Source: Candidatus Pantoea bituminis | GTDB taxonomy: Bacteria > Pseudomonadota > Gammaproteobacteria > Enterobacterales > Enterobacteriaceae | Length of the DNA: 64,000 nt | NCBI RefSeq assembly: GCF_018842675.1 | Contig: NZ_JAGTWO010000004.1 | Span: 2,914,001-2,978,000 of the forward strand | Direction of reading: 5' to 3' | Shown here: in pieces, positions 1 to 64,000 of the stretch | Layout of the letters: every line of letters starts with the position of its first letter | Numbering within the stretch: the first letter of the stretch is position 1 | Made by a program: the position numbers and the translations under genes | The notes under the pieces: model-generated | Seen by the model: the letters and a program-made list of their open reading frames with translations, nothing else | Database searches by the model: none | Told to the model about the DNA's origin: nothing

Positions 1-1373
1 ATGACTATTTCCCCTTCTTCAAGCCGTCGTGAATTTCTTGGTAACGGCGCACGCTGGGCAGCCGCAGGAGTTTGCTGGCTGCTGGCATGAGCCAGACCAG
101 TTTTGCCGCCAATACGACATCTCACTCGCCAGCTCCTTTGCCCAGTACCGATCACTATTTACTGCGGAATGTTCGCCTTGAAGAAGGCTTTGAGCGTGAA
201 GGCGAAGAGATCGTTGCGACTAAAACTGGGCTGTATGACATCAGCATCCGTGATGGTAAATTTGATCAGTTACACCCAGCCGGTCAGGGTGACGCTTCAC
301 TGACGGCCTGGGATGCGCAAGGTGCGCTGTTGCTGCCCTCCACTCACGATATGCATATCCATCTCGATAAAACATTTTATGGCGGCCCGTGGCAGGCACC
401 GCGTCCACGTCAGGGCAAAACCATCATGGATATGATTGCCCGTGAGCAGGTGTTGATCCCGCAGTTACTGCCCACTTCAGTCGCGCGAGCAGAAAGTCTG
501 ATTGCCTTGTTGCAATCCAAGGGTTCGACTCAGGCACGCAGTCATTGCAATATCGACCCGGTCAGCGGTCTGAAAAGCCTGGAACATCTCCAAACCGCGC
601 TGGCGAAGCACCCTGAATTTCCCTGCGAAATCGTGGCATTTCCGCAGCACGGTTTATTGCATTCGCAGGTCGATGGATTGATGCGTGAAGCGATGCAGCA
701 CGGCGTGCAGTATGTCGGCGGACTGGATCCGACGAATGTCGATGGCGCGATGGAAAAGTCGCTGGATGCGATGTTCCAGATCGCGCTCGATTTCCAACGC
801 GGCGTGGATATCCACCTGCATGAAACCTCGCCAGCCGGCGTTGCGGCGATTCGCTATATGATCGATACCGTGGCAAAGAACCCGGCGCTGAAAGGCAAAG
901 TAACCATCAGTCACGGCTTTGCGCTGGCGACGCTGGAAGGCGCTGAGCTGGATAAAATGATTCAAGGGTTGGTTGAGCAGCAATTTAGCGTGGCGTCGAC
1001 GCTGCCGATTGGCAAGCTGACCATGCCGATTCCGCAGTTGCAGACAGCGGGTGTTAAGGTGATGACCGGCACCGACAGCGTGGTCGATCACTGGTCGCCG
1101 TTTGGCACCGGCAGTATGTTGGAAAAAGCCAATCTCTATGCGCAGCTCTATCGTGGTTCGGATGAGTTTTCACTGACGCGTGCGCTGGCGATTGCGACCA
1201 ATGATTTGCTGCCGTTGTCAGCAGAAGGTCAACGTCAATGGCCACAGCAAGGTGATGACGCCAATATGATGATAGTTGCCGCGAGCTGCTCAGCTGAAGC
1301 CGTTGCGCGCATCTCGCCAGTGGTTGCCACCTTATCACGCGGCAAAGCGGTATTCGCACTGCAACACGTTTAA
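1..1373 (+). CDS. Tat-exported cytosine-deaminase-like amidohydrolase (one apparent frameshift)
   Basis: Metal-dependent amidohydrolase fold. Visible motifs are the first metal-binding His-x-His (MHIHLDK), a second histidine strand (DIHLHE), a lone His in TISHGFA and a late Asp in GTDSVVDHWSPFGT, arranged as in cytosine deaminase. The first codons, in another frame, encode a twin-arginine signal (SRREFLGNGARWAAAG); this runs into a stop at 88-90. Adding one T to the T run at 71-73 joins it to the hydrophobic stretch and the enzyme body, giving about 457 residues. Periplasmic location is inferred from the Tat motif. The window starts exactly at the ATG, so upstream signals are not visible. The substrate is unknown; the cytosine deaminase resemblance is only at family level. 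Confidence 0.75.
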
Positions 1374-1388
1374 CTGTTCCAATGCTCA

Positions 1389-1797
1389 ACGCAGTTACAA
1401 CGCGAAAGATGACGGGTATGACGAGCAGATACCCTAAATAATTCGTGTTGCGGCAAGCATGTGAGTCCCCGGGAGCTTACACCGGTAAGTGACCGGGGTG
1501 AGCACGTGCAGCCAACGCAGCTGCAGCGCGAAGTATGACGCTCCGTTACCCTAAATAATTCGTGTTGCAGCAAGGCGGCAAGCGTGTGAGTCCCCGGGAG
1601 CTTACGCCGGTAAGTGACCGGGGTGAGCACGTGCAGCCAACGCAGCTGCAGCGCGAAGCATGACGCTCCGTTACCCAAAATAATTCGTGTTGCAGCAAGG
1701 CGGCAAGCGTGTGAGTCCCCGGGAGCTTACGCCGGTAAGTGACCGGGGTGAACACGTGCAGCCAACGCAGCTGCAGCGCGAAGTATGACGGGTATGA
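1389..1797. repeat. Tandem ERIC (IRU) array, three copies plus a remnant
   Basis: Three near-identical units lie at about 1430-1546, 1547-1671 and 1672-1797, preceded by a degenerate right-end fragment at about 1389-1428. Each carries the ERIC core: GTGAGTCCCCGGGAGCTTAC, then GGTAAGTGACCGGGGTGAGC, then GCAGCCAACGCAGCTGCAG. The core matches the inverted halves targeted by classical ERIC primers. The unit is about 125 bp; the first copy lacks a few bases near its left end. Open frames inside it are products of the repeat and not genes. Confidence 0.92.
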
Positions 1798-1811
1798 CGG
1801 GTAAAAATGAC

Positions 1812-1833
1812 AAAGCCTCCCGCAGGAGGCTTT
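1812..1833. terminator. Probable rho-independent terminator
   Basis: A perfect 9-bp stem (AAAGCCTCC / GGAGGCTTT) with a CGCA loop lies 24 bp beyond the stop of the minus-strand small gene. A-run and T-run flank it, so it could serve either strand. Confidence 0.75.
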
Positions 1834-1857
1834 AATCAGACAGACAAAGCAGCTGCG

Positions 1858-61839: not shown

Positions 61840-61955
61840 TTTCCCGCCTGACTCATTACTCAACAAAGTATATCTCTTGTCTGTTATAGGGATTTTAGTA
61901 CGGGGTTTCAATCAATGTCGGTGAATGTCGGAATTCATCTCATTCTTAATGTGCA

Positions 61956-61982
61956 AAACAGCCGGCGGATTGCAGGCTGTTT
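61956..61982. terminator. Hairpin downstream of the MFS gene
   Basis: AAACAGCC / GGCTGTTT stem with an 11-base loop; on the minus strand it is followed by TTTGC, just past the MFS stop. Confidence 0.65.
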
Positions 61983-61988
61983 CGGGTT

Positions 61989-63167
61989 TTATTCCATCAC
62001 TGGCTCGGAGCTAGGCCGATCAAGGCGGCCACTTAGCCGAATCAATAACAGAGCAGAAAAAACGATAAGCGCGCCAATCCACGGCGTTTGAGACAGCCCA
62101 TAATGTTGAACTACGTAGCCTCCAATTGTCGATCCTAACGCAATACCGACATTGAAAGCGGCGATGTTCAGCCCTGACGCAACATCAACCGCGCCGGGTG
62201 TATAACGTTCCGCTTTCTGTACTACATACACTTGCAGGCCAGGCACGTTTCCAAACGCAAATATTCCCATCACCAACACGGTTGCTAAAGCTGCCCAATG
62301 AAGTGAGGCAGTGAACTGAAATAGGAGTAACGATAGCGCCAACGCAGCAAAAATCAGGCTAAGCGCCCGTACCGGGCCTTGTGTATCTGCCAGCTTGCCG
62401 CCCCAAATATTACCGATCGCGACAGACACGCCATAGCCGAGCAAAATAATGCCTACTGCCGAAGGTGAGAACCCCGCTAACTGCTGCATGACAGGCGCTA
62501 AAAATGTAAAGGTGGTAAAAACTCCGCCATATCCTAGCGCGGTAATGGCGTAGATCAGCATCAAGCGAGGATTAACTAAGACCTGTGCCTGCTGTAACAG
62601 ACTCGTGTTTTTAGGTTGGGCGATATTACGCGGAATAAGTATAGCGCTCGCGATTAAAGCTATGACACCCAGCAACGATACAGCGAGGAAACTTTCGCGC
62701 CAGCCAAAATGTTGACCAATAAAGGTTCCCATCGGAACACCCGTCACTAAGGCAACGGTTAATCCACCAAACATGATAGCAATGGCGCTGGCGGCTTTAT
62801 CTTTACTGACCAGGCTGGTGGCAATTGTTGAACCAACAGAGAAGAAAACGCCATGCGCCAGCCCTGTCAGCAAGCGAGCAATGATCAGCGTGTTGTAATC
62901 GGGGGCTCGCCAGGCAACGATGTTGCCCATCGTGAACAGCGCCATTAATCCTACAAGTAAATATTTACGCGGTAATTTTCCTGTCAGCGCAGTCAACACT
63001 GGCGCGCCTACCGCAACGCCTATTGCATAGATCGATACCAGCATTCCTGCTGAAGGTAAGGTAATGGTCATCTGTTCGGCGATCGTCGGGATCAATCCTA
63101 CAATGACAAATTCAGTTGTTCCTATAGCGAATGCGCTGATGGTTAGCGCCCAAAGAGCAAGTGGCAT
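61989..63167 (-). CDS. MFS transporter, DHA1 (AraJ/YdhP-like) family
   Basis: 392 residues, 12 transmembrane helices, from ATG 63167 with GGAG six bases upstream. Drug:H+ antiporter-1 features: FAIGTTEFVIVGLIPTIA, RLLTGLAHGVFFSVGSTIA and FGGLTVALVTGVPMGTFIGQ. Substrate unknown; likely efflux of a sugar-like or toxic compound. Divergent from the LysR gene, its probable regulator. Confidence 0.9.
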   Translation of the reverse strand: MPLALWALTISAFAIGTTEFVIVGLIPTIAEQMTITLPSAGMLVSIYAIGVAVGAPVLTALTGKLPRKYLLVGLMALFTMGNIVAWRAPDYNTLIIARLLTGLAHGVFFSVGSTIATSLVSKDKAASAIAIMFGGLTVALVTGVPMGTFIGQHFGWRESFLAVSLLGVIALIASAILIPRNIAQPKNTSLLQQAQVLVNPRLMLIYAITALGYGGVFTTFTFLAPVMQQLAGFSPSAVGIILLGYGVSVAIGNIWGGKLADTQGPVRALSLIFAALALSLLLFQFTASLHWAALATVLVMGIFAFGNVPGLQVYVVQKAERYTPGAVDVASGLNIAAFNVGIALGSTIGGYVVQHYGLSQTPWIGALIVFSALLLIRLSGRLDRPSSEPVME

Positions 63168-63266
63168 AATTAACTCCATCCAATGATTGATGGCCGCTAG
63201 TATTGCCGCATGCTTTAATAACAAAAAGATGCAAAATAACAATAGTCTTTTGTCTGGAGGGAAATA

Positions 63267-64000
63267 GTGAAAGCATCTTCTGAAGAGCTAAAAGTGTTTG
63301 TTAGCGTGGTTGAAAGCGGGAGCTTTAGTCGCGCCGCCGAGCAACTGCACATGGCAAACTCGGCTGTAAGTAGGACCATCAAGAAGTTAGAAAATAAGCT
63401 CGGCGTTGCGTTGCTTACGCGAACAACACGACATTTAGCGCTAACACAAGAAGGCGAGCGTTATTTCAGACGGGTGCAAAGTTTCTTACAAGAAATGACA
63501 TCGGCAGAAAATGATTTAATTGAAAGCCGTTACGCACCAAAGGGTTTATTACGAGTGGATGCAGCAACGCCGGTTATTCTTCATCTACTTATGCCAATGA
63601 TTAAACCCTTCCGCGAACGTTATCCTGATGTCACTTTGTCGTTAATTTCCTCTGAAAGCTTCATCAATTTGATTGAACGCAAGGTGGATGTGGCTATTCG
63701 AGCAGGTAATTTAACGGACTCAACACTGCGAGCCAGACTGCTATTTATAAGCTATCGAAAATTGGTAGCTTCACCTGAATATCTTAAAAAAGGGGGACGC
63801 CGCACAATGTTACAGATTTAGATCGCCATGAGTGCCTGGGCTTTGTTGATCCTTCGCGTCTAAATCGCTGGCCTGTTGCTCAGGAAAGCGGTGAGCTTTA
63901 CGATATTCATTTGGGAATGTCTTCTAATAGCGGCGAGACCATCAAACAGCTTTGCCTAAACGGCAATGGCATCGCATGTTTGTCTGATTACATGATCGAT
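63267..64000 (+). CDS. LysR-family transcriptional regulator (partial, one apparent frameshift)
   Basis: GTG at 63267 behind GGAGGG. N-terminal winged helix at about 1-60 (FVSVVESGSFSRAAEQLHMA, SAVSRTIKKLENKLGVALLT), then the start of the effector domain (KGLLRVDAATPVILHLLMP). The G5 run at 63792-63796 is one short: as written translation stops at 63821, while one more base continues into PHNVTDLDRHECLGFVDPS and on to the window edge. Gene continues past 64000. Confidence 0.9.

What the first reader, a model, noticed from the sequence alone, without database searches (positions are those of the whole stretch)
1..64000. Systematic single-base deficits in homopolymer runs break at least 13 genes
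Frames are broken at 71-73 (T3), 3605-3609 (A5), 4308-4312 (T5), 12213-12218 (A6), 13260-13263 (C4), 16526-16531 (T6), 22269-22273 (G5), 26007-26012 (A6), 44672-44676 (T5), 45082-45086 (A5), 52118-52122 (T5), 60510-60513 (G4) and 63792-63796 (G5). Every one is cured by adding one base to the run, and the repaired proteins have family lengths (ProA 417, PepD 485, YgiW-like 130). All errors go the same way and hit essential-type as well as accessory genes. That is the signature of homopolymer under-calling, not decay. Anyone reading this window without correction would call a proline auxotroph and many pseudogenes.
Basis: partly seen in the sequence, partly recalled or inferred. Interest (0 to 1): 0.78.

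Follow-up and report, generated by a model that had tools for sequence, protein, structure and literature searches.

The report
Nanopore homopolymer errors in Pantoea genome
The broken genes in this window are almost certainly not real pseudogenes: the sequence comes from a nanopore-only assembly of an environmental Pantoea in which runs of identical bases were read one base too short, even in genes a cell cannot live without.

Summary
The window lies in contig C4 (4,008,183 bases) of a 5-contig genome. That is exactly the largest contig published for Pantoea sp. EnvD (later P. bituminis), sequenced by Oxford Nanopore R9 and assembled with Flye; polishing or short reads are not mentioned (PMC9022320, whole text).

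All 14 go the same way; 13 lie in runs of 4-6. By a strict filter the window has 9 one-base losses and no gain; four relatives together have 2 and 1; EnvH, from the same study, has 18 and 1.

Elsewhere the same genome is broken in rpoB, six ribosomal-protein genes and ftsI, and a G6 of 16S rRNA (as in G067) is short in 7 of 7 copies. Broken genes show no relaxed selection and no in-frame stops.

Corrections: 45082-45086 is really 45083-45087; two listed breaks fall in one gene, so the list covers 12 genes. A well-known artefact, of low biological interest, but this assembly is the nomenclatural type of P. bituminis.

The parts
71..73 (+). Frame break in an amidohydrolase / cytosine-deaminase-like gene (ORF 72-1373 is its remainder); exact run uncertain
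   Evidence: 7 of 7 relatives longer by net one base; protein alignment to G068 breaks at 71, 1 of 1; family
3605..3609 (+). Frame break in dbpA (DEAD-box RNA helicase DbpA), linker before the RNA-binding domain
   Evidence: 3 of 3 relatives by protein; dbpA unbroken in 55 of 58 named loci; family
4308..4312 (-). Frame break near the N-terminus of a BOF-family (YgiW-like) gene
   Evidence: 19 of 19 relatives; BOF Pfam hit; frames
12213..12218 (-). Frame break in a small gene beside a lysozyme-like gene (prophage-type lysis group; no family hit)
   Evidence: 14 of 14 relatives; 3 of 3 by protein, 3 of 4 with EnvH added; no family
12609..12615 (-). Further frame break, not in the finding, in a DUF7940 gene
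   Evidence: 15 of 15 relatives; 4 of 4 by protein; DUF7940
13260..13263 (-). Frame break in a phage-lysozyme-family gene
   Evidence: 15 of 15, 3 of 3 by protein; weak Phage_lysozyme hit, 23.2 against cut-off 22.3 bits
16526..16531 (-). Frame break in proA (glutamate-5-semialdehyde dehydrogenase)
   Evidence: 5 of 5, 6 of 6 by protein; TIGR00407
22269..22273 (+). Frame break in pepD (cytosol non-specific dipeptidase)
   Evidence: 5 of 5, 6 of 6 by protein; TIGR01893 over its cut-off, PRK15026 below its cut-off
26007..26012 (+). Run directly after the start codon of a periplasmic-binding-protein gene; the start codon is out of frame with the gene
   Evidence: 4 of 5 relatives differ by +1 or -2; the same short run stands in EnvH; Peripla_BP_4
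44672..44676 (-). Second frame break in an amino-acid ABC permease, near its C-terminus
   Evidence: 4 of 4, 5 of 5 by protein
45083..45087 (-). First frame break in the same ABC permease (the finding gave 45082-45086)
   Evidence: 4 of 4, 5 of 5 by protein; BPD_transp_1
52118..52122 (-). Frame break near the N-terminus of a glycosyltransferase family 25 gene
   Evidence: No close relative; 5 of 5 distant homologues break at 52117-52120; Glyco_transf_25
60510..60513 (+). Frame break in mltD (murein transglycosylase D), before the LysM domains
   Evidence: 5 of 5, 6 of 6 by protein; PRK10783; intact homologues of 457-459 aa head the list in the protein database
63792..63796 (+). Frame break in yafC (LysR-type regulator); an A6 and a G5 adjoin, so the run at fault is not certain
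   Evidence: 4 of 5, 6 of 6 by protein; NF040888

Best explanation
The breaks are base-calling errors. R9 nanopore signal hardly changes while a run of identical bases passes the pore, so its length is judged from dwell time and tends to be called short (recalled mechanism, not tested here). With a Flye consensus and no short-read polishing, the same one-base loss recurs in most reads at a run and stays in the assembly, shifting reading frames about once per 4.6 kb of this window. Shown: the losses, their direction, their place in runs, their presence in essential genes and rRNA, and the published method. Inferred: that the raw reads carry the shortfall at each individual run.
For: Method: MinION R9, Guppy 4.4.2, Flye; 'polish', 'medaka', 'Illumina' and 'short read' occur 0 times in the text. 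Direction: 9 losses and 0 gains against 2 and 1 in G068, G052, G005 and G067 together. Essential genes broken: rpoB 4 of 4 relatives; rplC, rplD, rplV, rplX, rpsH, rpsE 3 of 3 each; ftsI 3 of 3; no unanimous break on the gene strand in G068, G005, G067 over the same stretches; a family search also finds rpoB split in G000 alone among 6 genomes. Same disease in EnvH from the same study, mostly at other residues: 18 losses, 1 gain, and rpoC broken 3 of 3 by a gain. rRNA: a G6 short in 7 of 7 16S copies, a G4 short in 3 of 7 copies further along the operon. No decay: nonsynonymous/synonymous codon differences 0.316 in 10 broken and 0.287 in 38 intact genes against G068; 0 in-frame stops. Runs of G or C of 6 or more: 1 in 124 kb, against 3.9-14 per 124 kb in four relatives and 2.5 in EnvH.
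Against: No raw reads could be examined. Site 71 has a run of only three as written. At 26007 one relative (G039) showed no net difference in the blastn tally, although its start codon is in frame. G039 (M. mediterraneensis) has 1 loss and 3 gains of its own by the strict filter, so real or assembly lesions do occur in this group. dbpA carries lesions in two assemblies not known to be nanopore, so a real lesion there is not excluded. Run counts also depend on base composition: G000 has more A/T and fewer G/C runs of 3-5 than most relatives, so the shortage of long G/C runs is only partly evidence.
Confidence: 0.98

Rival explanations
1. Real gene decay: the lineage is losing genes, for example after a change of lifestyle.
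For: Many genes are broken in one window; dbpA also carries lesions in M. mediterraneensis and P. eucrina LMG 5346.
Against: Essential genes are broken; no in-frame stops and no relaxed selection in broken genes, and protein identity stays high after each break; all 14 changes go one way and 13 sit in runs of 4-6.
Confidence: 0.01
2. Real frameshifts whose products are rescued by transcriptional slippage or programmed frameshifting, as described for poly-A tracts of insect endosymbionts (recalled).
For: Selection is intact after the breaks.
Against: Runs are only 3-6 bases and include C and G; the same genes are in one frame in relatives; untranslated rRNA shows the same losses; EnvH breaks at mostly other residues.
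Confidence: 0.005
3. A mismatch-repair mutator strain that accumulates slippage mutations.
For: Losses sit in homopolymers.
Against: One-way direction; loss in seven of seven copies of an rRNA gene; broken rpoB and ribosomal-protein genes; a second strain from another city, sequenced the same way, shows the same pattern.
Confidence: 0.005
4. Nearly all breaks are artefacts but one or two are real, most likely in dbpA (3605) or in the glycosyltransferase gene (52118).
For: dbpA is disrupted in the linker in L012 (11-base loss) and L042; the glycosyltransferase gene has no close relative to judge by.
Against: Both breaks in the window are single-base shortfalls at runs of 5, like the rest; 55 of 58 named loci have dbpA unbroken.
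Confidence: 0.05

Closest known systems
Residual homopolymer-length errors of long-read-only bacterial assemblies (PMC8812927 and PMC9262707, seen only as search listing with start of abstract)
   Same: One-base errors in homopolymers spread over the genome, breaking frames; both abstract starts name homopolymer errors as what short-read polishing is needed for.
   Different: Nothing in kind; this is one more assembly, in which the errors reach rpoB, ribosomal-protein genes and rRNA.
Gene-fragmenting errors of long-read assemblies found by comparison with relatives (Kastor, PMC12007338, search listing with start of abstract only)
   Different: Here done by an ad hoc frame-aware alignment for one window and three operon regions.
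Pantoea sp. EnvH (P. haifensis) assembly
   Same: Same study, platform and assembler; same type of error over the syntenic region.
   Different: Mostly other residues of the genes; also one base gain in the region and one in rpoC.

Membership tests
Nanopore homopolymer under-calling artefact | Platform and pipeline: long reads without short-read correction | tested here: met
Nanopore homopolymer under-calling artefact | Errors sit in homopolymers and are mostly losses | tested here: met
   14 of 14 losses, 13 of 14 at runs of 4-6
Nanopore homopolymer under-calling artefact | Independent of gene function, essential genes included | tested here: met
   rpoB, six ribosomal-protein genes, ftsI; that they are essential is recalled
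Nanopore homopolymer under-calling artefact | Also in untranslated sequence | tested here: met
   G runs in rRNA operon copies
Nanopore homopolymer under-calling artefact | Absent from accurate reads of the same strain | not testable with these tools
   No reads available here; the published reads SRP316834 are nanopore
Pseudogenes by decay | Relaxed selection, stops and larger lesions | tested here: not met
   0 in-frame stops; nonsynonymous/synonymous ratio like that of intact genes
Pseudogenes by decay | Confined to dispensable genes | tested here: not met
   Essential genes broken

The most novel reading that the evidence does not exclude
Most breaks are artefacts, but the dbpA linker may be a real lesion hot spot in Pantoea: three of the 58 named loci examined, plus the window, are broken within residues 360-374 of 460, two of them in assemblies not known to be nanopore, so that strains could lose the RNA-binding domain while keeping the helicase core.
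Probability: 0.05. Interest if true: 0.3.

Novelty: not a real feature. Interest (0 to 1): 0.12.

Why it matters
As biology it is ordinary: nothing here shows a proline auxotroph or a burst of pseudogenes. As a warning it has some weight. This assembly is the nomenclatural type of P. bituminis (PMC10665919, passages), its rpoB is broken as assembled although rpoB was one of five genes used to place it, and pseudogene counts, auxotrophy calls and rRNA run lengths taken from it or from EnvH would be unreliable.

Tried and rejected
Simple tblastn chaining missed breaks near gene ends and flagged many doubtful ones, because relatives' ORFs were taken from the first start codon; it was replaced by a frame-aware alignment. 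In one search, events shared by the same query at the same residue in another subject were dropped as properties of the query, and events had to be supported by at least two genomes and three quarters of those covering; this also dropped the breaks at 71, 4308, 12213, 26007 and 52118, which rest. In one search only unanimous events on the gene strand with at least two genomes were printed for the three operon regions. The earlier both-strand pass also lists many events seen with one relative only, in G000 and in the relatives alike, one 2-of-2 gain on the opposite strand in G068, and one further 2-of-2 loss in another gene of G000 in the rpoB stretch; these were not counted.

A Dam/Dcm-motif cause was considered: 0 of 14 runs have GATC or CCWGG within 7 bases, so these motifs are not the main cause. 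A clade-wide slippage tract in dbpA was rejected as the general cause: the four lesions differ in place or kind. A search for an intact copy from the same species by the MltD fragment showed homologues of at most 96% identity, so no second strain (120 of 2280 listed). The E. coli collection gave no match. A first literature search on nanopore pseudogenes listed two papers that I did not open. The query was taken to be ProA when it was sent; it is DbpA; notebook entries 1 and 2 keep that mistake.
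Full report
Where the window comes from. The window is G000:C4:2914001-2978000 of a genome with 5,222,323 bases in 5 contigs, completeness 95.96, contamination 2.25; contig C4 is 4,008,183 bases. Relatives of the gene at 2408-3640 are headed by Pantoea and close genera. A data note on two Pantoea isolates from asphalt in Israel gives 5 contigs and a largest contig of 4,008,183 bases for EnvD, and 10 contigs and 3,740,753 for EnvH, sequenced by MinION R9, basecalled with Guppy 4.4.2 and assembled with Flye (PMC9022320, whole text read in two parts). 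The words polish, medaka, Illumina, homopolymer, frameshift and short read do not occur in it. EnvD is now P. bituminis (PMC10665919, passages only). The nearest genome by DNA, G004, has a contig of 3,740,753 bases, the length of the EnvH contig in the named collection. Names for G004 (EnvH), G068 (Ca. Pantoea varia) and G039 (Mixta mediterraneensis) rest on equal contig lengths.

The breaks. I aligned ORFs of five relatives to the window with a frame-aware dynamic-programming aligner, then added EnvH, and compared about 300 bases around each run with 70 sequences by blastn. Every listed site is supported, 26007 least firmly, with counts and exceptions in the observation check. Two listed breaks, at 44672 and 45083, lie in the same permease gene. 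By family search on the copies of a relative (G068), the genes are an amidohydrolase, DbpA, a DUF7940 protein, a phage-lysozyme-family protein, ProA, PepD, an amino-acid ABC permease, MltD and YafC; on window pieces, a BOF protein, a periplasmic binding protein and a family 25 glycosyltransferase. The small gene at 12213 had no family.

Direction and background. With a strict filter the window has 9 one-base losses and no gain over 56,770 covered bases. G068, G052, G005 and G067 together have 2 losses and 1 gain over 242,312 covered bases. G039 has 1 loss and 3 gains over 63,691. EnvH has 18 losses and 1 gain over 57,190. G039, whose named contig has a SPAdes-style title (L012), thus has lesions of its own, but not this one-way pattern. 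Of the 14 breaks, 13 are at runs of 4-6; runs of 4 or more make up 5.6% of the bases.

Essential genes. I took 60 kb of the same contig around rpoB, the S10 operon and ftsZ, with the matching stretches of G068, G005 and G067, and of EnvH for rpoB. On the gene strand, 9 unanimous breaks were found in G000, all losses: rpoB (4 of 4 relatives), rplC, rplD, rplV, rplX, rpsH, rpsE and ftsI (3 of 3 each) and a hypothetical protein (2 of 2); G068, G005 and G067 had none, EnvH had one gain, in rpoC (names, rpoC by position and length). A family search also finds rpoB split in G000 alone among 6 genomes. The L2 and FtsZ domains searched are unbroken in G000. That the broken genes are essential is recalled knowledge. 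A cell with these lesions could not live, so the sequence must be wrong there.

Untranslated sequence. Seven rRNA operons of G000 were aligned with seven of G067; 4193 of 7066 alignment columns passed the conservation filter. A G6 in 16S is short in 7 of 7 copies, by two bases in one of them; another G run in 16S is short in 1 of 7, a G4 further along (23S by position) in 3 of 7, and a later G6 in 7 of 7. Other differences in that alignment are spacer and tRNA content, one loss outside a run (7 of 7) and two gained columns near the start of 16S (7 of 7 each), which look like ordinary divergence between species. Copies that disagree within one genome point to calling rather than inheritance, though real copy differences are not excluded.

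No sign of decay. Against G068, the ratio of nonsynonymous to synonymous codon differences is 0.316 in 10 broken and 0.287 in 38 intact genes; against G005 0.357 (6) and 0.393 (38); against G039 0.271 (7) and 0.253 (42); in-frame stops are 0 in all six groups. Genes with only other frame events were left out of both groups. One broken gene, at 12213, has more nonsynonymous than synonymous differences (31 to 21 against G068).

What is left open. At 26007 the window and EnvH have the same short run after the start codon: either both under-called a longer run or it is a shared trait. dbpA is unbroken in 55 of 58 named loci; the other three are EnvH, M. mediterraneensis (an 11-base loss) and P. 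eucrina LMG 5346. These lesions differ from one another and from the window's in place or kind, so they do not change the reading, but dbpA is the one place where I would check for a real lesion.

Verdict. The finding is correct and ordinary: an uncorrected nanopore assembly. Homopolymer errors of long-read-only assemblies are well described (PMC8812927, PMC9262707, PMC12007338, listing and start of abstract only). Searches for papers naming P. bituminis, its accessions or EnvD gave three papers in all; of these I read one whole, looked at passages of one, and did not open the third (PMC12038178), so I cannot say whether the errors have been reported there.

Noticed in passing
3566-3618; L012, L020, L042: dbpA is broken in the same linker (residues 360-374) in M. 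mediterraneensis (11-base loss), P. haifensis EnvH and P. eucrina LMG 5346, at different places.
   Followed up: partly
26004-26012; L126: EnvD and EnvH share the same short A run just after a start codon, out of frame with the gene, while G039 has it in frame.
   Followed up: partly
12100-14000: A group of small genes with a weak phage-lysozyme hit and DUF7940, about 2 kb from a tRNA-Thr at 9993-10068, looks like a prophage-type lysis remnant also present in relatives; the gene at 12213 shows unusually few third-position changes, as if a second gene overlaps it.
   Followed up: no
G000:C4, 16S copies (L138-L144): The seven 16S copies of the assembly differ in G-run length from each other and from G067, so 16S taken from this assembly carries errors.
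   Followed up: partly
L115 (G004:C4:3203501-3223500): The EnvH assembly has its own frame break (a gain) in rpoC, 3 of 3 relatives.
   Followed up: no
8635-9039: A cspA thermoregulator RNA element (Rfam RF01766, 170 bits) on the minus strand.
   Followed up: no
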